Under the pieces are notes generated by a model. It saw only the letters and a list, made by a program, of their open reading frames with translations, was not told where the DNA came from and searched no databases. Positions 2,108 through 26,166 of a stretch of DNA of 64,000 nucleotides are shown piece by piece. The position numbers were made by a program, and so were the translations under genes. Numbering within the stretch: the stretch's first letter is position 1; every line of letters begins with the position of its first letter. Source of the DNA: Plicaturopsis crispa FD-325 SS-3 (Eukaryota > Basidiomycota > Agaricomycetes > Amylocorticiales > Amylocorticiaceae); the NCBI GenBank assembly GCA_000827205.1, contig KN832557.1, positions 2,008,278 through 2,072,277 of the forward strand. The letters run 5' to 3'.

Positions 2108-3563
2108 CATCTCGGAAGCGCGCACGACGACAATACAGCCGCTGAGGACGAGCAGCCAATAGAAGAGTTTGAGCTCGATGACCTACCGTCTCACACTGAG
2201 GTTCTCACTGCCATTAGAAAGGTACGGAGACCATCTGCGAGATCACTAGGATGATATATCTGAAGATTTTTACAGCTCCGTAAAATTGTGACCGCCGTCA
2301 GGTCAAGCCCTCAACGACGCAAGCTGTGGCTCCACGAGGTCAACATCTCGTTGCAGCGAATGGAAGAGGCGCTCAACGATTTGGAAGAGGCGGTTATCAA
2401 CAACCTCTCCCATGCAGCCCAGGCTAAGGTCAGCCCGGCCGGACAAATGCTTATTTTAGACGTTCGGACACGTTGGGCCTCGACCCACCAAATGATGCGT
2501 GCGTCGTTTCTCACACAGTCGCAGGTACATACCATGATGCTGACATGTTTCGTAGGACGTGCTATCACTTTTAGAGAGGCCGTCGACTCCTTCGTTGCGA
2601 AAGTGAAGGAGCTGCGCAAGTTTGAGCTTTCCTCCGACGACTGGAATGCCATCATCCTCGTATCTGGCTGGCTTCAAACGTACCGGGAGGCAACAGTGCA
2701 GATGTCGACAACGAAGCAGGCGACATTGTCTTACGTTCACGCTGTCTTCAAGACTCTTCAAGCGGACGTCAAGACGGCCCTTGAGAAGCTCCCGGACAGT
2801 GCCCCTCAATGCATCCGCAACGGGCTTTATCGAGCTCATCGCAAACTCAGTGACTATTATTTCAAGTTCGATGAATCCCCATTCTATGTGTGGGCATCAA
2901 GTACGTGCACACACTGTATCTTCAGCTTTCGAGTCACACTGACCAGCAATGCAATAGTTCTTGATCCGCGCATCGGATACACAAACTTTCTATCGGACGA
3001 GGATAATGATGAAGACATGCGCGCGCACATCGAGTCCTCCCTCGACATGCTCAAGATCTACTACGCGAAACACTACGCAACGTCCGCCAGCACTCCCACC
3101 GCCTCATCTACTTCTGCCACCGCCTCTGGGCCATTCAATAAAGTCCCGGGCTCGCCGAGAAAGGATTTTACAGCGCGGTACAAGAAGAAAGTTCGGTGCG
3201 AGCCTGCACGCGAACTCGAAGAGTACTTACGGCTTCCAGCTGAGCCGTGGGATGGATGCGATCCGGTCAAGTGGTGGGCACTTCACGCGAAGCACTTCCC
3301 ATGCCTCTCTCGTTTGGCCCGTGATATCTTCACGATACCTGGTATGTGAGCCTTCAACACAACATCATTCTGGTTCTTGCTGAAATACGGAATTCCTGAC
3401 ATTAGGGTCGTCAGTTGCGGTAGAACGCATTTTCTCGGGTGGGCGGGATACTATTGGGCTACGTCGTGCAAGCCTCAAGCCTGAGACCATCCGTGTTCTC
3501 ATGCTCGTAAAACAACGCCTCCGTATCACTCGACGTACAATTGATGACCTGCTTAGCTCTTAA
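2107..3563 (+). mobile_element. hAT-superfamily transposase, 5'-truncated
   Basis: The C-terminal two-thirds of a hAT (Ac/Tam3-like) DNA transposon transposase. A first exon piece (about 2110-2225) is joined by a GT-AG intron to a long exon starting LRKIVTAVRSSPQRRKLW. That exon carries the hAT hallmark LDVRTRWASTHQM and later AIVLDPRIGY. A second intron (about 3342-3407) leads to the C-terminal dimerisation block SSVAVERIFSGG, which includes the Glu expected in the hAT catalytic triad. The N-terminal BED zinc finger and the first catalytic Asp region are absent: the reading frame begins directly at the LTR-like sequence. The intron near 2900 is not cleanly resolved, because splicing the obvious GTACGT site breaks the frame whereas reading through does not. 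I judge it a dead, 5'-truncated copy. Confidence 0.85.
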
Positions 3564-10307: not shown

Positions 10308-10992
10308 TTCAAGGACGGCCTAGGTTTGGCGCGCACTCTTTCAACGCCGTTGATTGTCTCTATCTTGGTCGTGAGTCCCGCTCCGTTACGATTCCTCCTC
10401 TATGCTAATGACTGCTCACATTTAAATGCTGATTATCTCGTCATAGAATCGCAATGCATTTCCCAGTGTGATATCACTGGACCAGGGAGATATGCTCAAG
10501 CAGTCCCAGAGCACCCCCTTGCGGAGCACTTCTAGTCGAGCATTGAAGGTATGGGCGACCGCGGGCCACTTGCTCGAGCCTCGAGCACGGCGTGCCGTGA
10601 TTTCGTCTCCCTAACAGTATAACCGTAAGATGCAATGCAACCACAACAGATATCGTAGTATTACACTGTCGTTTGAACGCGTCCAAGTTGTGATTTTTTT
10701 CCGATTTTTGTTGAGTATGACCTGTCGAGAATTTGCGGCGTCCGACGTCGGTGCCGCCCTGGTGCCGCCGGCTTGAATTTTATCCAAGGCGCACGGCGCG
10801 ACATTGTTCGGCACGATTCGGCCGACTTGGAAAATCCCACTCCTCCCCGGCTGTCGACGTCGTCTGAGCACGTCTGAGCGCTGTCCCGCCGTTTCTACTA
10901 TATCTATTGCAAACTGCTTGTTTACTGCTCGTCTTGCACTCTACTATCGTCACTGGTCTCTTTACGTCGCCCAACGTGGTCGCCGCCAAGAA
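10308..10992. other. Intergenic, ERT1 5' region
   Basis: About 685 bp. It should hold the MYND pseudogene's 3' end and the promoter and 5' UTR of the zinc-cluster gene. A CT-rich tract (about 10838-10935) precedes the start codon. No gene was seen. Confidence 0.5.
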
Positions 10993-12834
10993 ATGTCATA
11001 CCAAGTCGATGGCAACTATCTAGCGAACGAACCCACCGCTTCGAGCTCGTCTTTACCTGCAGAAGAAGATGACCCAACAGGCCAGAAGAAAAAGTCCAAG
11101 CGCCGCAAAGTGAACCACGCATGTCTCTACTGTCGGCGCAGCCATATGACGTGCGACGATGGGCGCCCATGCCAGCGGTGGTGAGCAGCAAGCAGGTTTG
11201 GGTTGTTGGGTATCACGGAGATAACGGCTGCATAGTATCAAACGAGAGATCGGGCACCTCTGCCACGATGAACAACGACCTTCCAGGAGCCAAGAGAAAC
11301 AGGCGGCCCCTACGACTTCTGTCGATATGTCCAGGAATTATTCCAGTGAGTATCGTACCGATGTACGCATGGAAGCGACTGATCATAGCATCGTAGCCAC
11401 TCATTCGAATGCGTATGGCACGCAGTCGGCAACCAGTTCTGCTTGGCCGATGGGTGTTCCCCAGGGTGCATACTTGTATCAGCCAGAAACATTAGGAAAT
11501 GAATTTTCGGTCCTGACGTGCGCACTTTCTTCTACTATCGGCGTCACAACATGTAGTTGATGCTCCCCCTAGCGACTTCCTTGAAACTCTCGATGAGCGC
11601 TCGTTCTTTACACCCCCGCCGTCACATCCCCAGACGTCGTTAGCGCCTTCCCTAATATCTGCAGGCTCGTTCGCGAACCGGCGACCAAATCCACCCATCC
11701 TCATGCCCCCCTCCACCAATGCCAACTCGTCTGTCGCTCCGGAGACAAACCCCCCGCCGCCACCTGTGTCCGCAACGGAGGAGGCGCCGCCAGTTGTCCT
11801 GCAGGCTGCGACAAAGACCGAGCGATTCCTGTTGACGGCCGCGGACCAGGAGAGCGGGTCTCGTGACGAACGGCTGAACCGTGTAATTCGAAGTAAGTAC
11901 GAGGCAGGCTTGCTGAAGCCGTACAACTATGTCAAGGGTTACGCTCGCCTTTCACGGTGGATGGACCGGAAGTGAGCTAGTATTTAACTCCTATTTTTTG
12001 TTGGTGCTCATCCACGCCCGTGTATGAAGTGTGTCTCAGGAATCCAAGCAGCAGATCCTACAGCCACTCTCCGTTCTCCGGCCAAAATTCAGGGCGCGTC
12101 TCCTTTTCCTTGCCAGTTACCTGTTTTGCTCATTTTCCATTCACCTAGGCTGTCGCCCAGTCCCTCCGAGACATTGTCAGTTCAGCTCATCTACCACACC
12201 ATCTATTTACTGACCTGTATCAGGATCTTGTATTCATCGAGGAGGCATTCGAACGGCTGCTTCTAGACTACGACCGCGTGTTTTCTGCCATGGGCGTGCC
12301 CGCGTGTTTGTGGCGCCGTACGGGCGAAATCTACAAAGGCAACCGTGAATTCACGGAGCTCGTCGGTGTCGATGGCTTCATGCTTCGCGATGTCAGCATC
12401 AATACACCTTACTACTGGCCTGACCACCGCTGATCGAATTTTACAGGGCCGCTTATGCATATACGAACTAATGGCGGAAGAATCGGCCGTCAACTACTGG
12501 GATGTGCGTGTTCGCTCATCAAATCATCTTCGTTCATCCCCTGACTCAAGCAAATCCACGCGCACGCCTCCCGCAGAGATACGGCCAGATCGCATTCGAC
12601 TCGTCGCAAAAGGCCGTGCTGACGTCCTGCGTGCTGCGGTACAAGCCAAACCGCAACACGCTCTCCTCGTCGACCGCGAACGACACGACGAACGGGAAGA
12701 AGCACGCGCGGAAGGACAGCGACGCGGACGCGCCGCCGGAGGAGTGCTTCATCAACTGCTGCTTCTCGTTCACCATCCGCCGCGACAAGTGGGGCATCCC
12801 GAGCATGATCGTCGGGAACTTCATCAAATGCTGA
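10993..12834 (+). CDS. ERT1: Zn2Cys6 transcription activator of gluconeogenesis (ERT1/AcuK type)
   Basis: Nine exons (10993-11180, 11236-11345, 11397-11517, 11573-11971, 12030-12093, 12149-12175, 12224-12391, 12447-12503, 12577-12834) join in frame to 463 aa. A basic stretch (KKKSKRRKVNHA) leads into the zinc cluster, with Cys at residues 44, 47, 54, 60, 63 and 72, split by intron 1. A Pro-rich linker is followed by the family-specific segment SKYEAGLLKPYNYVKGYARL and a PAS-like C-terminal domain (about residues 310-460) with YDRVFSAMGVPACLWRR and the ending WGIPSMIVGNFIKC. In other fungi the ERT1/AcuK/AcuM family switches on PCK1, FBP1 and related genes on non-fermentable carbon. The fifth intron (12094-12148) can only be spliced in frame from a GC donor. 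Exon 6 is just 27 nt. Confidence 0.9.
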
Positions 12835-13240
12835 GTGGGTGGCGATGCCAAATAGATGTTGGCGATAATGGTGACTGGGTGCATATCGGTGCGGACGATC
12901 TATAGGGTACTATCTTTTTTTGGTTTGCTTCATCTTCACGGGTTACAAAACACTTAATTGCGCCCCATCTCTCTTTCCTCTTACGTTTCCTTGGATGGAC
13001 GGATGGAGGGGGACTTGCACGTCACGGCGAGAGAGCCGTGCCAAAATGTTGTATCAAAAATTGCAGAATATGATGGTGGATTCACTAGTCTTGTCGGTTC
13101 GGATACTATACATACAGAGAGCGATCACAATCCGTGTGGATAGGGATAGGCGTTGGAAGACGAGAAAGAGAAGTCCGAAGGACCGCGATGCCGCCACCAG
13201 TCAAAAGCTCTGCGAGACGTAGCGGAAGGGCGTCGTTCCA

Positions 13241-13687
13241 CTAGTCACATATCCGAGTCGCATACATCCTGCACACCGGCGGCTCATTGTACAGATGCAG
13301 CTTAGTGAAGCGTATAGGCCTGCGCGGCGAGCGCCCACGTGGGATATACTGGAACGCCAAGTCGGGGTGCGTAATCTCCACATGTATCGACATGTCGCAG
13401 GGAATCATGTAGTGCGGGTAGGGGAGGGGCGCCATGGGGAGCTGACGGCCGTCTGTCGCTGCGGTGTACGACTTGACCGACACTTTATACGGCGGGGCGA
13501 GCGGAGGGACGGTACTGTCACCGACCTCCATCCGCAGTTCCGCTATGCCGACTACAGAGCGGGTGACGTCGAGGAAGCACGGCGGGAGATCGAGGTCGGG
13601 ATTGATGCTGACGATTTGGAAGCCGCCGCGGATCTCGGCAGCGTGGTAGGTCATAGAGAACTTGTTGCGAACAGTGGGTGGGGCCAT
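13241..13687 (-). CDS. 148-aa hypothetical protein, array-flanking family copy 1
   Basis: A single open frame of 148 aa starting MAPPTVRNKFSMTYHAAEIR. It is about the same length as the plus-strand protein at 20667-21113 and aligns along its whole length: a strand-rich pattern with (R)GGFQIVSINP versus RGDIEVVSTIP, then MSIHVEITHPDLAFQY versus NRIDIEIRTPGVEFQY near the C-terminus. There is no signal peptide or membrane segment. Function is unknown. The two copies bracket the six-member small-protein array, pointing outward-in: this one minus at the left, the other plus at the right. Confidence 0.65.
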   Translation of the reverse strand: MAPPTVRNKFSMTYHAAEIRGGFQIVSINPDLDLPPCFLDVTRSVVGIAELRMEVGDSTVPPLAPPYKVSVKSYTAATDGRQLPMAPLPYPHYMIPCDMSIHVEITHPDLAFQYIPRGRSPRRPIRFTKLHLYNEPPVCRMYATRICD

Positions 13688-14253
13688 GGTAGCAGCGAGG
13701 GGATCGACTGCCAGTTAGAAAAGGTAAGTTAGTAGTGCTATGTCAGTGTTGCAGGATCAGCTGGACGTACGGTGGTAGATTTCGTATATATACGATGGGT
13801 ACGATTGCGTGGTTGTTCTAGGACTGTTTGTTGAGTGTGTATAAAAGCTGAGCACACTCACCTTAAGTACCATCGGCGTGCTGCTAAAGCGGGCCAAAGC
13901 AGGCCAAAGCGCCCTATGCCGAAGGGGTGCCAAAGCATGTCAAATGCGGTGCATAGGCTGTGAAGGAGATCCAAAGCCAACAAAGCAGACAATAGCTGTA
14001 GACCGCGAGTCTAACCTGAGATATTGCGTACTGAATGGATCGGGACATCAGCACAGGTCTATGAACATTCAGAGCATCGGGGAGTGGTTTATCGAAATAA
14101 AATGCTATACAAAAAGTCATAGCGCAGATGCGCACGATACATATGAAGATACAAATGCGAACAGGAGCATTCAGGTCCTATATGATTCATGGGGAACGTG
14201 AGCAATGATGCCTGTCGATGATGCCGCTAGAACACGCACCGGATACCAATCCA
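13688..14253. other. Intergenic, no gene recognised
   Basis: About 565 bp. The right part (about 14080-14250) is the diverged 3' flank of the first array gene and resembles the flanks at 16330-16580 and 18600-18860. A few GCCAAAGC repeats lie near 13890-13960. Confidence 0.5.
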
Positions 14254-14793
14254 TTATACAAGCAGAACCTGTGGAGGAAATGATAGCGTCCGAATAATGG
14301 AACCGTCGGCGCCGAGAACTTCGTACTTTCCCTGTTTCGGGCAGTAGTATACGTGAGTAGTAGCACCCTTGCGCTCGCCGGCTCGCGACATGCGCTGAGG
14401 TGGCGCATAGTAAGGCGGGGTGTGCCAGAAGCCCCACTCGGTTTCGCCCTGGACGCGCGTACCATCGGCGTGCACAAAGTCAACAATGAGCACATTGTCG
14501 TAGAGAGGGTCTTGGTAGACGCGCATGGTGACGCCACCACCTATTGTGGCCATTTGTGCATGCGTGAGGTCAGGGTTCTCGTACTAGATGGTAACGAATA
14601 AGCATCTCATAGAATAAAGGCAGCAGAGAATTTGGCTCACTGAATGGTCCATGTTGCGCGTTCCCTCTGCGGGCTGGGGCACTACCTCGGTCACTTTCTT
14701 GATGGGTACTTGGCGCGGCGGGCTAATGGCTTTGCGAGTCTTGACAGTCGAACGATTCGCGGTTGTGCGAGCGGCAGTTCGAGCAGAAGACAT
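14254..14793 (-). CDS. Array gene A, small two-exon protein of unknown family
   Basis: Exons 14793-14641 and 14583-14254 give 160 aa. Exon 1 encodes a short basic, Thr/Arg/Lys-rich tail (MSSARTAARTTANRSTVK) and ends at HS before a phase-0 intron. Exon 2 begins YENPDLTHAQ and carries the family core: VTMRVY, VDFVHADGTRVQGETEWGFW, a Tyr-rich THVYYCPKQGKYEVLGADG, and a closing RTLSFP. No signal peptide or membrane segment was seen; the basic tail could direct nuclear entry or bind nucleic acid (inference). This is the most diverged of the five minus-strand members. I do not recognise the family. Confidence 0.75.
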
Positions 14794-14920
14794 ACTAGCA
14801 GATAGCTGTGTGGCGGTAGGTACTCTGGATTTTGTGGGAGTGGCACTTAAGAGGTGGTGGTTGTAAGGTGAAAGACGCTTTGGTTTCGTCGATCGCTTAA
14901 GGCTCAACGCGTCCTCAGCT

Positions 14921-14944
14921 GCCGCGGAGTCTGAATTACACATG
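14921..14944 (-). promoter_or_regulatory. Composite promoter motif of array gene A (degenerate)
   Basis: On the plus strand GCCGCGGAGTCT, 6 nt, then CACATG, 128 nt upstream of the start codon of gene A. The E-box half differs by one base from the CACGTG of the other copies. Confidence 0.55.
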
Positions 14945-15378
14945 AGATCTGCTGGGATCTACAACAATGGAACGTCCCCGAGAGCTCCCGGGCTCCCCAG
15001 AGTAAACGACCTAGCCTTGGATTTAGCTCGAGCGCCGAAATCAACTTAAAACTCAGCTTGCGATCCAGGGAATTATTTGCGGAAAATACAAGGATATTAA
15101 TTTTATTAGAGGCCTATCATGTAAGTGCGTGAGGCGTCGCGCGTTTCAAAGAAGGGCATCAGAGAAGAGGTGGGTAGACATTTGGAGCGTCGGGAGCCAT
15201 GAAATTAAAGTAATACAAGATACAACACTAGAGTACGAGATGTTCCATGGCAAGGCATTGTGTGGGCGAGAATACAAATGAAAACAGCAGCATTTCTGTC
15301 CTAGATCATCCTAAGACGACGTGAGCAACGATGACCGGAATGAAGTATTGCCACCTACGGCACGTACCTGATAATCCG

Positions 15379-15960
15379 CTACTCAAAGATGGTCTGTACG
15401 GGGAACGACAGCTTGCGGAGGACGGTGCCATCAGTCCGGCGAACCTCGTAACTGCCTCTTTTTTGGCAATAGTAGAAGTGGGTGCTCTCGCCAACGAATG
15501 TGCCATGTCGCGGCATGAGCATGTCCGAGCCATCGATGGACCAAAAGCCCCAATCAGTGGGCCCGTCAACGCGCGTGCCGTCGGAGTACACAAAGTCGAC
15601 CAGGAGTGTGTTGCCATTATCGATAGGCCAGGGGTAGACACGCATGGTGACGCTATCGTTCAGGGGCAACGTTTGGGCGTGGGTAAGGTCAGGACGCTCG
15701 AACTGGTAGACAAAGAATAAACGGGTGGCACACGAGATACAAAAGACGATGCTCACCGAGTGGTCTATCTTCGATGGGTTTGGCACGTTGGGGAAGAACT
15801 GCGCCAGTAGCTCTGCGTTTGTGAGTGGAGGGTTGCCTTTGCGTGGCTTCCGGGCTGTGTTGGCAGTCGCGCGTTTCTTGATGGCACCGGCAGATTTCTC
15901 GGGGATGGTAGGATTCTGAGCGGCCGCCGTAGTAGACCTGGTGGTCCGTGCTTCAGGCAT
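15379..15960 (-). CDS. Array gene B, small two-exon protein
   Basis: Exons 15960-15757 and 15702-15379 give 175 aa. Exon 1 is a basic tail (MPEARTTRSTTAAAQ, later KKRATANTARKPRKG) followed by an acidic-hydrophobic stretch (LTNAELLAQFFPNV) and KIDHS. Exon 2 runs FERPDLTHAQTLPL, then the core VTMRVYPW, VDFVYSDGTRVDGPTDWGFW, THFYYCQKRGSYEVRRTDG and LRKLSFPVQ. The 54-nt intron has a length divisible by three and no in-frame stop, so retention would add 18 hydrophobic residues. It is the closest relative of gene D in the second duplication unit. The start was chosen to match the MP(A/E)AR starts of the paralogues, although an upstream in-frame Met exists at 15993. Confidence 0.8.
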   Translation of the reverse strand: MPEARTTRSTTAAAQNPTIPEKSAGAIKKRATANTARKPRKGNPPLTNAELLAQFFPNVPNPSKIDHSVSIVFCISCATRLFFVYQFERPDLTHAQTLPLNDSVTMRVYPWPIDNGNTLLVDFVYSDGTRVDGPTDWGFWSIDGSDMLMPRHGTFVGESTHFYYCQKRGSYEVRRTDGTVLRKLSFPVQTIFE

Positions 15961-16064
15961 GATGGGTGGTAGTAGACTTATATCGAGTGGCAACAGGGTG
16001 GAAGGAAGTGAAAGACGGTGAAGGTCGAGGGGACTCAGAGCGCGTCGCTAAATTGCCCTTGAAC

Positions 16065-16088
16065 GCCGCGGAGTTTCAATCACACGTG
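16065..16088 (-). promoter_or_regulatory. Composite promoter motif of array gene B
   Basis: Plus strand GCCGCGGAGTTT, 6 nt, CACGTG, 105 nt upstream of the gene B start. Seen from the gene it reads CACGTG then AAACTCCGCGGC. Confidence 0.7.
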
Positions 16089-16579
16089 AATATTTGCCTT
16101 GTTGGGACTCGGTGGCAACTCTCTCACTCTGAGCCGCTCTCGCACAACTCTCGAAAGCGCAGACATTCGCATTTGATGTTTTGAGGTCTGAAGCAATCCC
16201 TATACTAGACCACGGGGACGTGTCAGCGCTTCAGCGACGAGAGTGCATATCGCTAGAAACTGAACCCAAACAACAACAAAAAGACTTGTAGGCACGCTTT
16301 GAAGGTGAACCGAAACTGTCGTAGTCAACGGTAAGATTGAGTCAGAGCCGTTGTGGATCATGGAGTAAGATTACGAGCGATACATTGCACGACACTAAGT
16401 ATGAGATGCTCGTCTAAGTCGTACAGAGGAGGCGCCGATACGCGCGTGAAGAATCGAAGATGCAAACGCAAATGCAGTCAAATTGGGGGCGTGTCGGTCC
16501 TAGACCATTCGGAAAGAACGTCAACAATTATAACTGGTATGCGGGCAACGAGTGCCACTCACTAGTCGATACGCCACAT

Positions 16580-17144
16580 CTATATAATCTCAAACGGTGG
16601 CGGGGGGAACACTAGCGCGCGGACGACCGTTCCATCAGTCCGACGGACTTCGTACCTGTGCTGTTTGAAGCAGTAGTAGAGGTGCGTGCTGAAGCCCTCA
16701 GATTGTCCGTGCCGCGGCATAATACTGGGTGGGCCATGCGGACCAATGAACCAGAAGTCCCAGTCGGTGGGCCCGTCAACGCGCGTGCCGTCGCTGCGAA
16801 CAAAGTCGACCATGAGGGACTCGCGGCATCCGGACCAAGGATAGACACGCATGGTGATGCCATCGTCTATCGATGCCGTTTTCGCATGAGTGAGATCGGG
16901 GTTGCGATACTGTGCATGGTGAATAAGTATATAAAGCTACGGATAGTAGGGTTCAACGTACTGAGCGATCTATGAGATGAGCGGGCAACTGCTCGGCGAG
17001 GGGCAGAACCTCGCTGAATCTGATGAGACGTCGAGTGGATGCTGGCTTGACTGCAGCTGTGGGTGTTGGCTTGACTTTGCGCGTGGCGACACTCATGGTA
17101 GCGGAGCGTTTCGTGGTGGACCTAGTGATACGCGCTGCAGGCAT
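16580..17144 (-). CDS. Array gene C, small two-exon protein
   Basis: Exons 17144-16962 and 16909-16580 give 170 aa. The basic tail MPAARITRSTTKRSATMSVA is followed by ACVKP-like Ala/Pro/Lys-rich sequence and LPLAEQLPAHLIDRS at the exon end. Exon 2 begins YRNPDLTHAKTA and carries MRVYPWSG, VDFVRSDGTRVDGPTDWDFW, THLYYCFKQHRYEVRRTDG and VRALVFPPPPFEII. The donor is GTACGT, not the GTGAGC used by most members. It pairs with gene E in the second unit. Function is unknown. Confidence 0.8.
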
Positions 17145-17264
17145 GGCGAGAGATATCGAAAGGAAGGAAAAAATCTAGGGGAAGAGTGGCAACAGGTGGG
17201 TGGTGGTGGTTCAAGTGAAAGCATAGAGAGTCGAGCGCTCAAGCTCGCAGCTTTATCTGTGGTT

Positions 17265-17287
17265 GCCGCGGAGTTTGATGACACGTG
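17265..17287 (-). promoter_or_regulatory. Composite promoter motif of array gene C
   Basis: Plus strand GCCGCGGAGTTT, 5 nt, CACGTG, 121 nt upstream of the gene C start codon. Confidence 0.7.
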
Positions 17288-17612
17288 GCTGGGGGTCCAC
17301 ACGAATCTACAACAATCCTTATTATCTGTCTGCAATGCGCGAGTACTATGATATATCAGTATTGGCGTCACACTTTTCATAGGAGGGCATCAGAGGAGAT
17401 GGGGTTAGACATTCGGAGCATCGGGGGCCATGAAATTAGAGCAATACATGATACAACACTAGAGTACGAGACGTTCAACCATGGCAAGGCATTGTGTGGG
17501 CGAGAATACATATGAAAATAGCAGCGTTTCGGTCCTAGATCATCCTGAGACGACGTGAGCAACGATTACTGGAATCGAGGATTGCCACCAGCGCCACGTA
17601 CCTGATAATCCG

Positions 17613-18216
17613 CTATTCAATGATGGTCTGTACTGGGAACGATAGCTTGCGGAGGACGGTGCCATCAGTCCGGCGAACCTCGTAACTGCCTATTTTCCGG
17701 CAGTAATAGAAGTGAGTGCTCTGGCCAACGGCTGCGCCATATCGCGGCATGAGCGTGTCCGAGATATGGTGGCCGATGGACCAAAAGCCCCAATCAGTGG
17801 GCCCGTCAACGCGCGTGCCGTCGGAGTGCACAAAGTCGATCAGGAGCGTCTCTCCATTGTCCTTAGGCCAGGGGTAGACGCGCATGGTAATGCTATCGTC
17901 TATGGCAACCATTTGGGCGTGGGTAAGGTCAGGACGCTCGAACTAGTAGACAAAGAAAGATAAACGGGTGGCGCGAGATACAGAAGATTATCACGATGCT
18001 CACCGAGTGGTCTATCTTCGCAATGCTGGACACCGGGGGGAACATCTGCGCTATTATCTCTGCATCTGTGAGTGGAGGGTTGACTTTGCCGCGTGGCTTC
18101 CGGGCAGCGGTGGCGGTCGAGCGTTTCTTGGTGGCGCCGGTAGATTTCTCGGGCACGGTAGGATTCTCGTCGGTAGTAGACCTGGTGGTAGACCTGGTAA
18201 TCCGTGTTGAAGGCAT
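17613..18216 (-). CDS. Array gene D, small two-exon protein
   Basis: Exons 18216-18004 and 17942-17613 give 180 aa. Basic tail MPSTRITRSTTRSTTDENPT, then KKRSTATAARKPRGK, LTDAEIIAQMFPPV and KIDHS. Exon 2 carries VDFVHSDGTRVDGPTDWGFW, THFYYCRKIGSYEVRRTDG and LRKLSFPVQTIIE. It is nearly a copy of gene B, but its 61-nt intron is not a multiple of three. There is no signal peptide; function is unknown. Confidence 0.8.
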
Positions 18217-18313
18217 GATGGGCGGCAGTAGATTTATCTCGAGTGGCAACAGGGTGGAAAGAAATGGAAGTTGAAGGTCGAGACAAGCGTGCGTCGCTAA
18301 ATTGCCCTTGAAT

Positions 18314-18337
18314 GCCGCGGAGTTTCAATCACACGTG
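18314..18337 (-). promoter_or_regulatory. Composite promoter motif of array gene D
   Basis: Plus strand GCCGCGGAGTTT, 6 nt, CACGTG, 98 nt upstream of the gene D start codon. Identical in core and spacing to the gene B motif. Confidence 0.7.
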
Positions 18338-18863
18338 AACGGTTGCCCTGTTGGGACTCGGTGGCCACTGGCCGACTACTGGCCGCACCTCTCACTGCTC
18401 TGAGCCGCTCTGGAAAGGGCGGATGGTTTGCATTTGAAGCTACTGTGTACATGATGATTGATGACGCGTCAGATGCTAGTCAATTGCCAGTCAGCGCTTT
18501 AGCGACGAGAGTACATATCGTCAACCACTGTCAAAACACAAGCATAACTTGAAGTTGAGGCGACAAAAGGACTGGGAGGCACACGTGAATCGGAACTGTC
18601 GTAGTCAATTAAAAGACTGACTCAGAGCGGTTACGGAGTAGCGAATAAGATTGCGAAGAATACATTGTACAACACTATAGTATGAGATGCTTATCCAAGT
18701 CGTACAGAGGAGGCGCCGATACGCGCGTCAAGAATCGGGAATACAGATGCAAATGCAGTGAAAGCAAGGGTGTTTCGGTTCTAGATTATCCGGAAATCAA
18801 CGTCAGCAATCGCAACTGGAATGCGAATGACGATTATCACTCACTGGTCGATGCGCCACATCT

Positions 18864-19413
18864 CTATATGATTTCAAACGGTTGTGGGGGGAACACCAAC
18901 GAGCGGATGACTGTCCCATCACTCCGACGAACTTCGTACTTGTACTGCTTAAGGACGTTGTATACGTGGTAGGAGAACCCCCTGTGTTCGCCATATCGCT
19001 CCATACGCGAAGGCGGGTAAGGGCCGATGTACCAGAAGCTCCAATCGGTTGGCCCCTCGACGCGCGTACCATCGGGGTGTACGAAATCGACGACGAGTGC
19101 GCTTTCAGAAACGGACCATGGGTAGACGCGCATAGTGATTCCATCGCATATGGGTGCCGTTTTCGCGTGCGTGACATCGGGGTTCTCAAACTAGACGAAG
19201 AGTGAGTATCTCGAACTGGCAAGAGAAATAATGTGATCAGCTCACAGAGTCGTCTATCTTATTCAAGCCCTCCTCGACTGGGAAAAGCACAGCGAGGTCT
19301 GTGATGGGTTCGGGCGGTTGGTTGACTTTGTTAATGCGAGCCGACCTTCGGGGGACACTTGTGGTAGCCGAGCGTTTCTTGGTCGTGGACTTGGTAGTAC
19401 GCGCTGCAGGCAT
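18864..19413 (-). CDS. Array gene E, small two-exon protein
   Basis: Exons 19413-19246 and 19190-18864 give 164 aa. Basic tail MPAARTTKSTTKKRSATTSV with PRRSARINK, then ITDLAVLFPVEEGL and KIDDS. Exon 2 begins FENPDVTHAKTAPI and carries VDFVHPDGTRVEGPTDWSFW, FSYHVYNVLKQYKYEVRRSDG and IRSLVFPPQPFEII. It pairs with gene C. The YC of other members (YYCPK, YYCFK) is VYNVLK here, so that Cys is not conserved and is unlikely to be essential. Confidence 0.8.
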
Positions 19414-19554
19414 GATGATGAATATCGACGCGTGGATAGATAGATAGATTGCTCCTGAGTACTCGAGTGGCGACAGCTGCAGCTGGGTGGCGGTGGCGGC
19501 GATGAAAGAATATGGGAGAAAGCTGAAATTCGGCGCCTTATATTGCACGACGTT

Positions 19555-19578
19555 GCCGCGGACTTTAAAAACCACGTG
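19555..19578 (-). promoter_or_regulatory. Composite promoter motif of array gene E
   Basis: Plus strand GCCGCGGACTTT, 6 nt, CACGTG, 142 nt upstream of the start of gene E. A TATA-like ATATAAGG lies between it and the gene (about 19536-19544, minus strand). Confidence 0.65.
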
Positions 19579-19580
19579 GC

Positions 19581-20666
19581 CTGGGATCAACATGGATCTA
19601 CAACAATTTACGGGCGTCCTGGTTATCACCTTGTACTTGTCCTTTCGTTCGACACACCTCGCTGTCGCTGGGCTATTGCTTTTGTCTTTGGTGCTTTATC
19701 TACGCTGGCCATTTATCTCGACAATAAAATAGTCCATCAAACTGGGAAATTCTATGTTGTTCTGAATCTTCTACCTCGTGCATTGGGCGTGCGGGTATTG
19801 CCAGCGGTTTTTGTTGAAAGAAGCCGTCTCCGAGCCAGTGAAGACACAAGAGGACAGAGGACAAGGACTAGTCAGTTTCCATCCTCGAACGCCTTTAGAT
19901 CCTCACCTCAACACGGTCGTGTTTCACCAGCTCGTAGGCGTTCAAAAAATAGGTGTGTATCGCCTTTACAACAAAGGTTTATGCTGCTCTGACAGGAAGC
20001 CCAATTATCTTCAGTACGCCATGCTTTGGCCAAAATGCTGTGCATCGATTTCCTCTGCGCTTCTCGCTCGTTTCCGTGGATCCTTTTGGCGCGCCCGAGG
20101 CGTCTGAAGTCCTGATGATGGCACACAAAGGCCATCTTACTAGATTGGGTTTTCTCTGAAGAATGAGACTTTAGGTAGAGGATGGCCCTTGTGAGTCGAG
20201 TCTAGTGGTGGCTGTAGTTTCCAAGTGATGCTAACCACGTTTTCTGCCGCGAGTTTTTCTTATTTTGTGGCAAGAGTAAGTCAGTCCTGCAACCACGTCG
20301 TCCGTCTGTTCCAACTCGTTACTGACGCCGTTCACAGATCTGCCTTCCATAGTGTCTGGCCCATGCCACCGCTCTGCCCATTGCGTCACTGGACAGGGTA
20401 CTGCGTAGCACATGATTCAGTACCCTTTGGCTTTGCAGTGTCCCTCTTTGTCGAAGAAGCGCCCGTCCCGTACCGGGTATATAACTGCATAGGTCCCACC
20501 ATTTCACAACTAACCGTCGAATAATTCATTCACTCAGTCGCCACTCCAGCAACAAACAGTCCACACGATAATCCGCACCCGTACGTCTATCCATTCATGA
20601 AGGCGGCGTCGCAGTTGTTGACAAGCTAGAATATTAAAGATACTCCCCTTCTCACGCTCTCCTGAT
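19581..20666. other. Intergenic, no gene recognised
   Basis: About 1.09 kb between gene E and the 148-aa gene. Open frames here (for example 19778-20107, plus) show no recognisable features. A TATA-like GGGTATATAA lies near 20478, about 185 nt before the next start codon. Confidence 0.5.
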
Positions 20667-21113
20667 ATGCCACGGGAACCCTTCGTCGGATCCATCTCGT
20701 TCAAACACGCAGGCAAGCTCCGAGGGGATATCGAAGTGGTGTCCACCATCCCCAACGGCAACATACAGGCGACACGCCTGGTCGTCAAATGCTATCAGAA
20801 CCAGATGGCTGAAGTGACGTGGGAGTACGAGGATGGCACCCACGTTCCACACCCCCTACCTTTTCGGGTGATGGACTGGGGCAACACCTACTTTCGGCAC
20901 GCAGCACCTGCGCAACTCAACGCCTTCGTCGTTCCCTATCAGCACATACGCATGCCATGGATGAACAGGATCGACATCGAAATTCGCACTCCAGGCGTTG
21001 AGTTCCAGTACAACTATCGCCAGAAGGAAGACGAGGCACCCCGCCCGCCCTACCGCTTCCTTCGCCTGGAGCTCGACACCCAGACTCAGGCTTACGCTAG
21101 GGCATGTCGTTGA
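20667..21113 (+). CDS. 148-aa hypothetical protein, array-flanking family copy 2
   Basis: A single exon of 148 aa starting MPREPFVGSISFKHAGKLRG, rich in alternating hydrophobic segments that suggest a beta-sandwich. It is homologous along its length to the 148-aa protein at 13241-13687. The central part, AEVTWEYEDGTHVPHPLPFR, resembles the array-family core VDFVYSDGTRVDGPTDWGFW: acidic residue, aromatic, DGT(R/H)V, then Pro and an aromatic. That suggests the two families may share an ancestor (inference). Neither signal peptide nor membrane segment is seen. Confidence 0.7.
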   Translation: MPREPFVGSISFKHAGKLRGDIEVVSTIPNGNIQATRLVVKCYQNQMAEVTWEYEDGTHVPHPLPFRVMDWGNTYFRHAAPAQLNAFVVPYQHIRMPWMNRIDIEIRTPGVEFQYNYRQKEDEAPRPPYRFLRLELDTQTQAYARACR

Positions 21114-21542
21114 CGCGTATCGACTTTGGACTACTCGATGCGCCGTCACATGCGCCACCACCGCCGCTCATCCACTCGCTTTCATGCAATCCTCCCGCTA
21201 ATCTCGCACTCGTTTCTTTCTATGATCTCTTATGTCTATATTGACATCATATGCTCATGTTTAACCCTCTGTTTTTTATCCAACTCGTTGCTCTCGCGCT
21301 TTCACCCTGCTATACTTACTCCCCTTCATTAGTGTATCCTTGTTGTATAATCTTATGTTCGCAGGTTATCTTATACTTACGACCGTTTTACGAATGACGA
21401 ACTCGGTACGAGATGTCGCGTGAATCAACGCATTTATCCCGAAAACGCATTTGCCATTGAGCGAGACGTACTGTACAGCTGTACCGTGGAGACTGCGACG
21501 TTGCTTAGACGCCGCATTGTAGATCCAAGTGTAAGGCCTGGC

Positions 21543-21564
21543 CACGTGCACTTAACTCCGCGGC
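21543..21564 (+). promoter_or_regulatory. Orphan copy of the array promoter motif
   Basis: CACGTG, 4 nt, TAACTCCGCGGC, in the orientation that would serve a plus-strand gene to the right. Only 12 bp separate it from the left end of the 640-bp inverted-repeat element, so its original target gene has been displaced. Confidence 0.6.
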
Positions 21565-21576
21565 TACTGAGGACCT

Positions 21577-22216
21577 ATGATAGTCCCAATGGAGGTCACA
21601 TACGGAGTCCGGACAAATTTTTGATTTTGAGCCCCGAATGTTGGATATTTGTCCGGACAAATCGCCAAAATCTGACAACAGGTCGGATATTTAGTCCGGA
21701 CAAGCCAAATTGGCGCCACAGAGGTCGGATATTTGTCCGGACAACCTCCTTACACGGAAATTGTCCGCCTCCATATACGACCGGTCGGCGGCTGGGCTCG
21801 TGGTCTATCGAGTTTTGTATGGAAAGCTGGCCAGTTTGGGTCCTATCGGTACTTTGTACCTCCGTATTTACCCCGTTCTTATTATTTCTTAATGTCTTAC
21901 TCGCCGCTACACATAAATCTGTAGATACTCATTGTGTTTGCTCCCGAGCTCTCCTCAATTTGGGGTAGACCACTCAAATGCATACTTGACCTGAGTAGGG
22001 CACTAATATGTGCTTACACCGCCTACGACAATATTCTGGGATTTTTCGCGAATTTATTCGATTTTTAGATGTCTGATACGTAGTCCGGACAAGGCCATTT
22101 TTCTTTCGAGGTCGGATACATAGTCCGGACAAAATCTTCGGCACGTGCGGTTCAGAGTCCGGACAAATTATATTCGATTATTTTTTTCAGTATGTGACCT
22201 CCATTGGGACTATCAT
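21577..22216. mobile_element. 640-bp non-autonomous element with 27-bp perfect TIRs
   Basis: The left end (21577-21603, beginning ATGATAGTCCCAATGG) is perfectly repeated in reverse complement at 22190-22216. Inside are seven copies of TCCGGA set in (A/T)GTCCGGACAA contexts, at about 21608, 21652, 21695, 21736, 22084, 22124 and 22158, often preceded by GGTCGGATA. There is no transposase frame. This is the structure of a MITE-like DNA transposon; the repeated palindromes could be transposase-binding sites (inference). A target-site duplication could not be set with certainty, because the terminal AT could be either TIR or duplicated target. The perfect TIRs suggest recent movement. Confidence 0.75.
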
Positions 22217-22361
22217 CGGTCCTGGTGATGATGATGATGAACTCTGCATTTATATACCGCAGCAGGCAAACGAGTGCCAAGAGCGGTCCTACAGTACATG
22301 CGTAAAGTAGGTAAACGGCGGGGTTCTCGAACGGTGTAAACGACGAGAGGTCAACGGGGGG
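22217..22361. repeat. Local duplicate of 23696-23829
   Basis: About 140 bp (including GCATTTATATACCGCAGCAG) occur again, almost unchanged apart from two small indels, at 23696-23829 on the far side of the assembly gap. Each copy precedes a coding-looking start (22421 and 23950), so it is probably a duplicated promoter with a TATATA box. Confidence 0.75.
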
Positions 22362-22420
22362 AGGGTAGTAGGGGGTAGTCGGAATTGCACAGTAACGGGT
22401 TATAAGTAGCATAATTGGGC

Positions 22421-22669
22421 ATGAGTAAAGCAACGTCAGAGAAACGAAGCAGGCGGCGGGTGAGCAAAGCTCATGGAACGGCAAACGATTCAGAAAATGT
22501 CCTTCCCCGCGACTCACGAAAAACACTCCACCCCAGTCCTGCAAAAGGCCCTTCCGTCATCGCAAACACCTCTCCCGCACCCGACTCTTCACCCACCAGG
22601 ACACCCTTCTCACCCAACTCGCAGCCCTTGCAAACCTGGCCGATGAGCTCGAGAGCCCGATCGCATTAG
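22421..22669 (+). CDS. Short basic open frame, possible damaged array member
   Basis: Begins MSKATSEKRSRRRVSKAHG: a basic start reminiscent of the array proteins' exon 1, then Pro/Ser-rich sequence. It sits downstream of a duplicated copy of gene F's upstream region and of the orphan promoter motif. A second frame in its 3' part reads more like coding sequence (HQDTLLTQLAALANLADELE), which suggests either an intron or a frame change. The family core (MRVY, DGTRV) is not seen before the gap, so membership is only inferred. Confidence 0.3.
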   Translation: MSKATSEKRSRRRVSKAHGTANDSENVLPRDSRKTLHPSPAKGPSVIANTSPAPDSSPTRTPFSPNSQPLQTWPMSSRARSH

Positions 22670-22875
22670 CACCTTTACTGGGGTGGACCAGAGATAGAAA
22701 ACCGGTTGTCGAATGATGTATGTCGTAGATGGATGGAGTGAGTGAATGGAAAAGTGGATGGAATCCGATTGGGTCGTGAGCGAGGCCGTAGTGTCAAGGA
22801 ATTACATAAGTGGGGCCAGGGCACACGAGTGCCTAACGTCGATTGGTGAAGGCGGATGCGCACACGGCGACCGGA

Positions 22876-23419
22876 NNNNNNNNNNNNNNNNNNNNNNNNN
22901 NNNNNNNNNNNNNNNNNNNNNNNNNNNNNNNNNNNNNNNNNNNNNNNNNNNNNNNNNNNNNNNNNNNNNNNNNNNNNNNNNNNNNNNNNNNNNNNNNNNN
23001 NNNNNNNNNNNNNNNNNNNNNNNNNNNNNNNNNNNNNNNNNNNNNNNNNNNNNNNNNNNNNNNNNNNNNNNNNNNNNNNNNNNNNNNNNNNNNNNNNNNN
23101 NNNNNNNNNNNNNNNNNNNNNNNNNNNNNNNNNNNNNNNNNNNNNNNNNNNNNNNNNNNNNNNNNNNNNNNNNNNNNNNNNNNNNNNNNNNNNNNNNNNN
23201 NNNNNNNNNNNNNNNNNNNNNNNNNNNNNNNNNNNNNNNNNNNNNNNNNNNNNNNNNNNNNNNNNNNNNNNNNNNNNNNNNNNNNNNNNNNNNNNNNNNN
23301 NNNNNNNNNNNNNNNNNNNNNNNNNNNNNNNNNNNNNNNNNNNNNNNNNNNNNNNNNNNNNNNNNNNNNNNNNNNNNNNNNNNNNNNNNNNNNNNNNNNN
23401 NNNNNNNNNNNNNNNNNNN
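22876..23419. other. Assembly gap
   Basis: A run of 544 unknown bases. Open frames drawn through it have no meaning. The flanking duplications (22217-22361 and 23696-23829) suggest that local repetition caused the gap. Confidence 0.99.
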
Positions 23420-23695
23420 AATGAGATGGATGGCTCTGTCCTTGCTCGGATGCACCTCGGTTGGCGGGTTTGGTCTACGGGGTGAGTCATGGACTCGTTG
23501 GTGCTACGACGATGTCGAAAGCGGCGGCGGGGCGATGGGAGCTATCGACTTCGGTGGTGCCATGGATGCTGAGGACGTGAGCTCTGCGAGCTCGCTGTGC
23601 GGAAGCGACACCACCGTCCTTGCCCAGCAAAGAAAGCGTGGGAAAAACTCGACCAGGTGGTGGTACGAGTTCAAGGAGCTCTCTATCATCGGTCC

Positions 23696-23829
23696 TGGCT
23701 ACTGCAGTGATGATGATGAACTCTGCATTTATATACCGCAGCAGGCAAACGAGTGCCAAGAGCGGTCCTACAGTACATGCGTAAAGTAGGTAAACGGCGG
23801 GGTGTAAACGACGAGAGGTCAACGGGGGG
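23696..23829. repeat. Local duplicate of 22217-22361, upstream of array gene F
   Basis: Near-identical to the segment left of the gap. It contains TATATA (23730-23735), about 215 nt before the gene F start codon. Confidence 0.75.
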
Positions 23830-23949
23830 CGGCCACTGCAGTGCCACCCTCGCGCGGCCTTTCGACGCGTTCTTTGTCCCAGCACCACGACCATCTCTGC
23901 TTACCTGCAAAACAGTTTTACTTCATCGCTACTCACATCGACAAGAAAC

Positions 23950-24506
23950 ATGCCTGCAGCACGCAAAACCAGATCCTCGAATAGAAAGAAAACTTCGGAC
24001 AACCTGGATGTCAAGCCCCCCAAGCCTGAAGTTCGCAATCCGCCACAAACACCCGCCGAAAGAATAGCGGAGCTATATCCTCTCGCCTCCGAGGAGCCCG
24101 GTGCTGTTTTTGATCGCGCAGTGAGCCCAACTTATATGCGGATCGTACCACTTTATCTCGAGATGCTCATTGTTTCGCCCAGGTCGAGGACCCTGATCTC
24201 ACACATGTCCGAACGCTCCCCATAGACGACAACGTGACAATGCGCGTCTACACCTGGGCGCAACATTTCGACAGCATCCTCATGGTCGACTTTGTCTACG
24301 CCGACGGCACGCGCGTCGAGGGGCCTACCGACTGGGGATTCTGGTCTATCGGCCACCATAGCCGGGATACGCTCCTACCCCGCTTCGGCGCAGCTGACGG
24401 CACTCACTTGTACTACTGCCCCAAAGTAGGCAGGTACGAAGTTCGGCGAGCTGACGGTACTGTCATTCGTACCTTGTCGTTTCCTGTACAAACCGTGTTT
24501 GAATAG
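23950..24506 (+). CDS. Array gene F, plus-strand family member
   Basis: Exons 23950-24120 and 24183-24506 give 164 aa, with the same phase-0 intron position as the minus-strand members. Basic tail MPAARKTRSSNRKKTSDNLD, then ERIAELYPLAS and FDRA. Exon 2 runs VEDPDLTHVRTLPI, VTMRVYTW, VDFVYADGTRVEGPTDWGFW, THLYYCPKVGRYEVRRADG and IRTLSFPVQTVFE. Its core is closest to genes B and D. It lies 4.5 kb from the main array in the opposite orientation. The composite motif is not found directly upstream of it, unlike for A-E. Confidence 0.8.
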
Positions 24507-26166
24507 ACGGCATCAGGGAATCCGCGCGTCGCTCGTATGATAAAACACTCCTCGCGAGTCAGCCACAAGCGTGAGATTTCCTTGGGATGGATTTTAATGG
24601 ATTATAATCCCTTACAATTCGCCCGAAAGTCTGTTGGCCACATTGTAGTCTGGCAAAGGAATTTCGAGTCATCACAAAGTCATACGAGATAGTCGCAATG
24701 CTTCCACCTGCGTGAGACTCTTCGGGCGATGGGGACTTAGAACTTTTATCGCCAACTCGTTCGCCACGTACGTTTGCCGCTGTGCCGAGGGGCAATTTAC
24801 AAACTCCGCTGCCTGTGGGCTTTAAGTCCGTCGCTACGTCGATACCGACCTTCACCGTAACCTCCACCTATTTATCAATTCTTTCCATGTTTCTCTTCGA
24901 ACGCTCGCCAAACGCCTCGTCGTTGCCGTCTGGGCCGACCACTGCAAGGCGGACAACCCAGGACCTCAAGAACCTATAGAGCCGACGTGGATTCCCATTG
25001 GCAAGAGCGCGCCTTGCGCCTTCACAGCCCGAAAACGATGTTGACGGCCTGGATTCCATCGGACGTTCGTGAATGTCATGGTTGGCTCCCTGTTGGCTCC
25101 CTCTCCCCCATGACGATGGTCTTCAACAATGGACTCGGGCTGCAGGATGCGGCTGCTACCCGCTCGTGGATGGCTTTCGTGTATCGTGGTGTCGCAAAAA
25201 TGCTCCAGGACGTTGACCGACACTCTGGTTCTCCGGGAACGGGCTCAGCCCGACGCGCGAGCGGTTGCTAGCGCTTACGCGGCCTTTCAAGCATGGCCAA
25301 CACCTCGAACGCAGCCGTTTGTATCGTCGATGGATCGCACGCCGTCGCATACCCGCAAACCTCTCTTGGGGTTGGTTGCGCTTTCCTCAAAGCTCGCTCC
25401 GTCGTTTGCCTGGTGTCTCCTGCTCTTTCTCATATGGTGTCTGATGTGTATGGCTGCTGTAAAGTCGTGTAGCCCCCTTCTGTATTATTTACTGCAAAAT
25501 GCGATGCTTTTCCACTATTCTTTCTCAACTGTAAGCTCCTGTATGAAGTCATGAGTCTGAGTGCCTCATTTTAAGTGATTTCGTGTGCGACGGCCACTAC
25601 ACCTGCAGCTATAATGTGTGTAAGCATTGTCTTAATCCACAACAATAGCGGAATATCAAAAACCTTGCGAATTTCCATAAAGTCTAGCCAGGATAACGAG
25701 CTTGTGCAATGCGATGTACAATCCTTACGCACATTTCATACATTTTACCCCTCGCAATGGCTCGTAAGGTGGTTGCGAGGCTTCCAAATTTCTCCGCCAA
25801 TTCCCTAATGCGGGTGGCGCATATAGCAGGTGCGTGCGTGCTTCTGCTGTATGATTGTATTCCTTATATTGCTTTGGTATACTGTCCATTATTTTAGACT
25901 CTGATACTTCGAACGACGCCGCTCGATATTATTGAACGTCCGAGATCTTCAGTCTTTGTGGAGGGTGTAGGCTGAACCATGTCCAGTATATGAGGAGCCC
26001 CACGTAGCGATACGAATAGGGTTCAAACCGCCATTTCTGTCCAAGCCGAGAAACATAGGATATTGATGGCCGATTCCACATGAGCTGTATGTACTGTAAT
26101 GATGATGTCCGTTTTGCGTATGCGCCGCAAGTAAATAAGAGAGAGAAATGTTGGTACCCGTCTAAA
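24507..26166. other. No gene recognised
   Basis: About 1.66 kb. A stretch near 24890-25330 has several short open pieces in changing frames (for example LAKRLVVAVWADHCKADNPG), which could be remains of a gene, but no family is recognisable. The last few hundred bases are AT-richer and form the 3' flank of the GH16 gene. Confidence 0.45.

What the first reader, a model, noticed from the sequence alone, without database searches (positions are those of the whole stretch)
14254..24506. Array of an unrecognised small two-exon protein family
At least six paralogues (A-F; 160-180 aa) share one architecture: a basic Thr/Arg/Lys-rich tail in exon 1, a phase-0 intron at the same place, and an exon 2 core with MRVY, DFV(H/Y)xDGTRVxGPTDWxFW, a Tyr-rich strand and YEVRRxDGT. 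I recognise no known domain. Conservation of the core against fast change in the tail, together with local expansion, suggests a lineage-specific function under diversifying pressure (for example self/non-self, DNA-binding or defence), but the role is unknown.
Basis: partly seen in the sequence, partly recalled or inferred. Interest (0 to 1): 0.8.

Follow-up and report, generated by a model that had tools for sequence, protein, structure and literature searches.

The report
Orphan fungal gene array, shared promoter
A wood-decay fungus carries a cluster of small two-exon genes found so far in no other named species, all sharing one unusual promoter signature, so they are probably switched on together, although what the proteins do is still unknown.

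Summary
Six intact paralogues (A-F, 160-180 aa) lie where stated, each with a phase-0 intron of 52-62 nt at the same place. The genome (Plicaturopsis crispa, Amylocorticiales, not Polyporales) holds two more, G and H. All eight lie within about 101 kb of one contig.

Pfam, NCBIfam, PDB-sequence and fold searches recognised no family. The four named homologues are all P. crispa. AlphaFold2 gives a confident all-beta core (pLDDT 87.6).

New here: each gene has a composite element, CA(C/T)GTG-N6-8-A(C/G)TCCGCGGC, 98-142 bp before the ATG in seven. The one assigned to F is displaced by an insertion. A strict form occurs 8 times in 33.2 Mb, 6 of them at these genes. Its columns are 96% identical where other upstream columns are 44%. 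Shared regulation is likely.

Diversifying selection is not supported: omega is 0.16-0.75 for the core in 28 of 28 pairs, and the basic tail looks relaxed. The array grew partly by a B-C to D-E block duplication.

Best reading: co-regulated, lineage-restricted intracellular, probably nuclear, beta-sandwich binding proteins. Molecular function is inferred only.

The parts
14254..14793 (-). Gene A: exon 1 14793-14641, intron 14640-14584, exon 2 14583-14254 (160 aa)
   Evidence: spliced translation equals NCBI model P0012
15379..15960 (-). Gene B: exon 1 15960-15757, intron 15756-15703, exon 2 15702-15379 (175 aa)
   Evidence: equals NCBI model P0010; the intron happens to be an open frame
16580..17144 (-). 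Gene C: exon 1 17144-16962, intron 16961-16910, exon 2 16909-16580 (170 aa)
   Evidence: identical core piece listed as P0013
17613..18216 (-). Gene D: exon 1 18216-18004, intron 18003-17943, exon 2 17942-17613 (180 aa)
   Evidence: equals NCBI model P0009
18864..19413 (-). Gene E: exon 1 19413-19246, intron 19245-19191, exon 2 19190-18864 (164 aa)
   Evidence: identical core piece listed as P0014
23950..24506 (+). Gene F: exon 1 23950-24120, intron 24121-24182, exon 2 24183-24506 (164 aa)
   Evidence: environmental relative P0011 differs at 7 of 107 core residues
14922..14944 (-). Composite promoter element of A (CATGTG variant), end 128 bp before ATG
16066..16088 (-). Composite promoter element of B, end 105 bp before ATG
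17266..17287 (-). Composite promoter element of C, end 121 bp before ATG
18315..18337 (-). Composite promoter element of D, end 98 bp before ATG
19556..19578 (-). Composite promoter element of E, end 142 bp before ATG
21543..21563 (+). Composite promoter element assigned to F, now 2386 bp from its ATG
   Evidence: assignment and displacement are inferred
21570..22223 (.). 654-bp TIR element (hAT-like, non-autonomous) 6 bp after the F element; left target duplication GGCTACTG at 21562-21569
   Evidence: six other near-full-length copies at 97-99% identity plus one broken copy; 8-bp target duplications at 5 of those 6; window ends
22876..23419 (.). Run of 544 N inside the DNA between the F element and F
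23683..23832 (.). Second copy of the right TIR end (23683-23696), then GGCTACTG (23697-23704) and F promoter-proximal DNA; repeats 22210-22364
15133..19184 (-). Block duplication: 15133-16903 (B and the 3' part of C) against 17364-19184 (D and the 3' part of E), 77.5% over 1845 columns

Best explanation
A lineage-restricted multigene family of small soluble proteins, transcribed as a regulon. Each gene has one short phase-0 intron separating a basic, probably disordered tail (exon 1; pI 9.7-12.0) from a compact all-beta core of about 108 aa (exon 2). [Shown: gene structure, paralogy, confident all-beta prediction, purifying selection on the core.] A proximal promoter element joins an E-box-type half (CACGTG) and an A(C/G)TCCGCGGC half, 7-8 nt apart (6 in F). 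All eight genes kept it while surrounding upstream DNA diverged, so they are probably induced together, most simply by a bHLH-type and a Zn2Cys6-type factor. [Shown: conservation and rarity. Inferred: factors and co-expression.] The tail most likely carries the protein to the nucleus or to nucleic acid, while the core binds a partner or ligand through its invariant charged and aromatic residues (DFV, DGTRV-G-T, H-Y). [Inferred.] Copies arose partly by tandem block duplication whose edge probably lies inside exon 2, which would make C and E partly chimaeric. [Supported by the identity profile, not proven.]
For: Gene models and matching public models. Eight copies, all on C4 between 1932021 and 2032780. 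Structure: pLDDT 87.6, pTM 0.80, seven strands. Element: at A-E, G and H and upstream of F. CACGTGN7-12TCCGCGG has 21 sites in 33.2 Mb, 7 at the family; its reversed-pattern control has 8. The strict form CACGTGN7-11A(C/G)TCCGCGGC has 8 sites, 6 at the family; its control has 0. Motif columns are 96.2% identical against 44.3% for the rest of the upstream alignment, over 21 pairs of 7 copies, B left out as a near duplicate of D. Core omega is below 1 in 28 of 28 pairs; tail pI 9.7-12.0 in 8 of 8. Block duplication and identity fall inside exon 2 of C/E.
Confidence: 0.45

Rival explanations
1. Cytoplasmic defence or storage proteins of the fruiting body, such as a small beta-sandwich lectin, expanded by dosage and induced during fruiting; the conserved aromatic and charged residues form a sugar site.
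Against: The basic 51-71 aa tail is not typical of such lectins (recalled). No Pfam lectin or fungal immunomodulatory family matched A-F cores at E<=10. The fold matches are at background level.
Confidence: 0.2
2. Chromatin or nucleic-acid accessory proteins whose basic N-terminus mimics a histone tail (ART/ARK-rich starts), with a beta core as reader or oligomeriser.
For: The tail starts MPAARTTKSTTKKRSAT (E) or MPAARKTRSSNRKK (F), which resembles the composition of histone H3 tails (recalled, not tested); tail pI 9.7-12.0 in 8 of 8.
Against: No sequence relation was tested; composition alone is weak. The core pI is 5.2-7.1.
Confidence: 0.15
3. Allorecognition or other self/non-self proteins under diversifying selection.
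For: Local expansion, a probable exchange point inside exon 2 and a fast-changing tail.
Against: No omega above 1 for the core in any of 28 pairs; the tail looks only relaxed. Environmental relatives of B and F differ from the reference at 1 of 193 residues (intron read through) and 7 of 107; those of C, E and H show no difference over the pieces listed. That is no sign of balanced polymorphism, but it is not a population sample.
Confidence: 0.07
4. Domesticated remnants of a mobile element or virus.
For: A TIR element sits beside the F element, and a hAT dimerisation domain is encoded at 2264-3346.
Against: The TIR element has copies on other contigs, where the core searches found no family member. 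The genes have a conserved intron and promoter element. No viral fold match at E<=0.001.
Confidence: 0.03

Closest known systems
Fibronectin type III / cytokine-receptor-like beta-sandwich domains (e.g. 4nn5, 3di3, 1cn4)
   Different: About 10% identity, best Foldseek E 0.079, Z within the stated background; here a fungal protein with a basic tail
Lineage-restricted tandem (orphan) gene families of fungi (kind recalled)
   Same: Clustered paralogues, one named species, no Pfam domain
   Different: A well preserved composite promoter element at all copies (displaced in F) and a shared intron position
Fungal immunomodulatory proteins and fruiting-body lectins (recalled)
   Same: Small soluble beta proteins of about 110 aa without secretion signal (recalled)
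   Different: No profile match; basic tail encoded by a separate exon

Membership tests
FN3/Ig-like beta-sandwich | Significant structural match to a solved FN3/Ig domain | tested here: inconclusive
FN3/Ig-like beta-sandwich | Sequence profile match in Pfam | tested here: not met
   No such family at E<=10 for A-F cores or at E<=1 for full-length G, full-length D and the H core
Fungal immunomodulatory protein / lectin | Pfam profile match | tested here: not met
   that Pfam holds such models is recalled
Fungal immunomodulatory protein / lectin | Glycan binding | not testable with these tools
   needs an assay
Lineage-restricted tandem gene family | Several paralogues clustered in one genome | tested here: met
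   8 copies on C4 within about 101 kb
Lineage-restricted tandem gene family | No homologue outside the lineage | tested here: inconclusive
   8 and 9 hits at E<=10 in a database of 5.77 billion proteins (4878 and 4028 candidates scored); the 4 named ones are all P. crispa, the others have no name. The search needs shared 5-residue words, so remote relatives could be missed, and no other fungal genome was searched
Allorecognition gene family | Diversifying selection | tested here: not met
   omega below 1 for exon 2 in 28 of 28 pairs; no population test
hAT-like TIR element (insertion at F) | Terminal inverted repeats with 8-bp target duplication | tested here: met
   TIR 37 nt at 94.6%; 8-bp duplications at 5 of 6 other copies, read by eye; in the window the matching duplication follows the second right end, at 23697-23704, not the first at 22223
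hAT-like TIR element (insertion at F) | hAT transposase that mobilises it | not tested
   a hAT C-terminal domain is encoded at 2264-3346 but no link was tested

The most novel reading that the evidence does not exclude
A new protein domain family confined to the Plicatura lineage, with a private regulon: a composite CACGTG/TCCGCGGC element defines a coordinated set made of the eight genes plus at least one second uncharacterised small-protein family (two of its three genes carry the element about 190-200 bp upstream). Together they form an unknown intracellular response of this fungus, and exchange points inside exon 2 generate new core variants.
Probability: 0.17. Interest if true: 0.65.

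Novelty: new member of a known kind. Interest (0 to 1): 0.42.

Why it matters
It gives a clean, testable case of how a young gene family is born and kept under common control. In 27 of 28 pairs the synonymous difference of the core is already 0.51-0.74 per site, yet a promoter module of some 22-24 nt survives at all eight genes, and one copy (F) offers a natural promoter-break mutant. The element gives a handle on function: the inducing condition can be sought in existing transcriptomes. P. crispa has deep short- and long-read mRNA data (PMC4503453, abstract and passages seen).

Tried and rejected
Pfam, NCBIfam and PDB sequence searches gave only background hits: RCR and Tcp10_C at E 0.06-0.13, eIF3h_C at 0.34, a bacterial synthase at 0.15, MMP-9 and a sodium/calcium exchanger at about 1. 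Fold searches against PDB and viral models had no hit at E<=0.001. No specific family is excluded by the VIA-align list.

A second small gene pair in the same stretch (13241-13687 minus; 20667-21113 plus) looked as if it might be distantly related ('DGT', 'DWG' patches), but profile-profile comparison gave probability 0.1% on three sequences. Its structure prediction was poor (pLDDT 59.9), so a link is neither shown nor excluded. No composite element lies upstream of either.

A search for other genes with the exon-1 tail of E found only E itself, not even its paralogues, so that test lacks power. Conserved 3'-flank patches were seen in A-E but not in F-H and were not pursued. tRNA (whole window) and Rfam (13000-25200) scans were empty. 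Searches of the paper library: orphan genes with tandem, Agaricomycetes and lineage-specific, all required, 0 papers; CACGTG with CCGCGG, promoter and fungi, 1 listing, not opened; PLICRDRAFT, 2 listings, not opened; Plicaturopsis crispa, 27 papers, 25 listed, one looked into.

Gene conversion of the whole C/E coding region was considered. The profile shows high identity in the 3' flank and the last stretch of exon 2, then a fall, so a duplication edge inside exon 2 is simpler, though dips elsewhere in the block weaken both. The tree is weak: no starred branch, B with D 92/92, C and E not joined.

The 24 control matches were added; for them I lowered the novel case from 0.20 to 0.17. 'No homologue outside the lineage' was changed from met to inconclusive.
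Full report
IDENTITY. The window is C4:2008278-2072277 of a 33.2-Mb genome. Named database proteins identical to genes A, B, D and G are from Plicaturopsis crispa FD-325 SS-3, order Amylocorticiales.

OBSERVATION. Six two-exon genes were rebuilt from the sequence: five head-to-tail on the minus strand (A-E) and F on the plus strand. All introns are phase 0, 52-62 nt, at the same place. Four public models (A, B, D, G) agree residue for residue with this splicing. Whether those models rest on RNA is not known to me. The six cores share 38 invariant columns. A nine-row alignment with G, H and the environmental F relative still has 23, among them R21, D36-F37-V38, D41-G42-T43-R44-V45, R67, H77 and Y79 in D numbering.

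COPY NUMBER. Genome searches with the cores of D and A found the six plus G (C4:1990487, +) and H (C4:1932021, -), all with open frames. One further match on C5 (E 0.2, 29% identity, one stop) was dropped as noise. About 0.9 kb upstream of G is 78% identical to DNA upstream of H, and no other match was reported, so G and H look like a dispersed segmental duplicate pair. B and the 3' part of C match D and the 3' part of E (77.5% over 1845 columns). Identity is 88-89% in the 3' flank and exon 2 of B/D and 79% in the 3' flank of C/E. It falls to 71% in exon 2, 56% in the intron and 62% in exon 1 of C/E. The last stretch of exon 2 of C/E is still 83-86% identical, and only C and E end in FEII. I read this as a duplication edge inside exon 2, leaving partly chimaeric genes. 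Against it, identity also dips to 0.47-0.65 in non-coding DNA between B and C.

HOMOLOGUES. Profile searches of a 5.77-billion-protein database gave 8 hits (4878 candidates scored) and 9 hits (4028 candidates) at E<=10. Four are named, all P. crispa. The other five have no name: environmental contigs, two of them (P0013, P0014) listed without source as the window's own are. P0018 is B with its intron read through and 1 of 193 residues different. P0011 differs from the F core at 7 of 107. P0013, P0014 and P0016 are identical to pieces of C, E and H. The method needs exact 5-residue words, so remote relatives could escape. No other fungal genome could be searched here.

SELECTION. Exon 2: omega 0.16-0.75, below 1 in 28 of 28 pairs. 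Exon 1: above 1 in 1 of the 26 pairs with a finite dS (two pairs were saturated). B/D gives 0.50 and 0.90. For the other 27 pairs exon 2 pS is 0.51-0.74, so their omegas are rough. The data fit a constrained core and a relaxed basic tail; diversifying selection is not shown.

PROMOTER ELEMENT. The upstream regions of A-E hold CA(C/T)GTG, then 7-8 nt, then A(C/G)TCCGCGGC. A genome scan recovered the element at G, H and upstream of F, where the spacer is 6 nt. Its end lies 98-142 bp before the ATG in 7 of 8 genes and 2386 bp before it in F. CACGTGN7-12TCCGCGG has 21 sites in the genome, 7 at the family (A is missed because of CATGTG) and 14 elsewhere. Controls: the pattern read backwards has 8; the same halves at spacing 13-24, twice as many spacings, have 10, and that pattern read backwards 24. 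Chance is thus about 5-12 per six spacings. The 14 sites elsewhere are little above it, while 7 within 101 kb, each upstream of a family member, are far above it. The strict form CACGTGN7-11A(C/G)TCCGCGGC has 8 sites, 6 at the family, control 0; A and F are missed by it. In the alignment of 7 copies (B left out; F's row short) the 15 motif columns are 96.2% identical against 44.3% elsewhere. Other shared patches, by eye: TTGTAGATC before the E-box half (A, E, F, H; variants in C and G) and TTGCCACTC nearer the start codon (B, C, D, G, H; variants in A and E). TATA-like runs stand about 10-14 nt after the element in C, E, G and H. That CACGTG suits bHLH factors and CCGCGG Zn2Cys6 dimers is recalled, not tested.

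OTHER GENES WITH THE ELEMENT. Of the 14 non-family sites, two lie about 190-200 bp upstream of paralogous 108-aa genes on C1 and C5, in reverse orientation. They have no Pfam match; protein databases were not searched with them. The third member, on C9, has CACGTG but no CCGCGG upstream. For the C10 site with the strict form I recognised no gene among the frames listed. The other 11 sites were seen only as short flanks, except the C6 one, whose frames were listed.

F. A 654-bp TIR element (21570-22223) begins 6 bp after F's element. It has six other near-full-length copies at 97-99% identity and one broken copy (counts are lower bounds). Five of the six show perfect 8-bp target duplications; the sixth lacks a recognisable right end. 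In the window the left target GGCTACTG (21562-21569) recurs not at 22224 but at 23697-23704, after a second right end. The intervening 1.5 kb includes a 544-nt gap and a duplicate of F's promoter-proximal DNA. The insertion thus seems to have split F's element from its start region, but the inner order is unresolved and could be partly an assembly effect.

EXPRESSION LITERATURE. Passages of PMC4503453 report deep short- and long-read mRNA sequencing of P. crispa and polycistronic transcripts enriched in tandem duplicates. Whether this array was covered is not stated in the passages I saw, and supplements could not be read. This is the quickest test.

CONCLUSION. Real, intact, restricted to one named species as far as could be searched, probably co-regulated; molecular function inferred only. 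The most likely role is a nuclear or nucleic-acid-associated binding protein, with a fruiting-body lectin-like role as first rival.

Noticed in passing
13241-13687 (minus) and 20667-21113 (plus): A second small gene family (about 148 aa, 32% identical to each other) interleaved with the array; only these two in the genome at E<=1, and one environmental relative, P0017, 62% identical over 53% of P0007. No Pfam match.
   Followed up: partly
L052 (C5:654490-654813), L053 (C1:229717-230040), L051 (C9:1343452-1343769): A further uncharacterised family of about 108 aa with three copies; two carry the CACGTG/CCGCGG composite about 190-200 bp upstream in reverse orientation. Not searched against protein databases.
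   Followed up: partly
21570-22223: 654-bp TIR element with 8-bp target duplications and 97-99% identical copies at six other sites, so probably recently active.
   Followed up: yes
2264-3349 (plus): hAT C-terminal dimerisation domain in an open frame, a possible source of transposase for the TIR element.
   Followed up: no
15703-15756: The intron of B is in frame and open; if retained it would add 18 mostly hydrophobic residues. G's intron is open too; the other six are out of frame or hold a stop.
   Followed up: no
14034-14253 and the 3' flanks of B-E: Short conserved patches (variants of TTGCTCACGT and TCTAGGACC) about 50-80 nt after the stop in A-E, not seen in F-H.
   Followed up: no
10777-11184 (plus): Start of a Zn2Cys6-type regulator gene near the array (partial Pfam match, E 7e-4, just below its cut-off). 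Whether it binds the composite element is untested.
   Followed up: no
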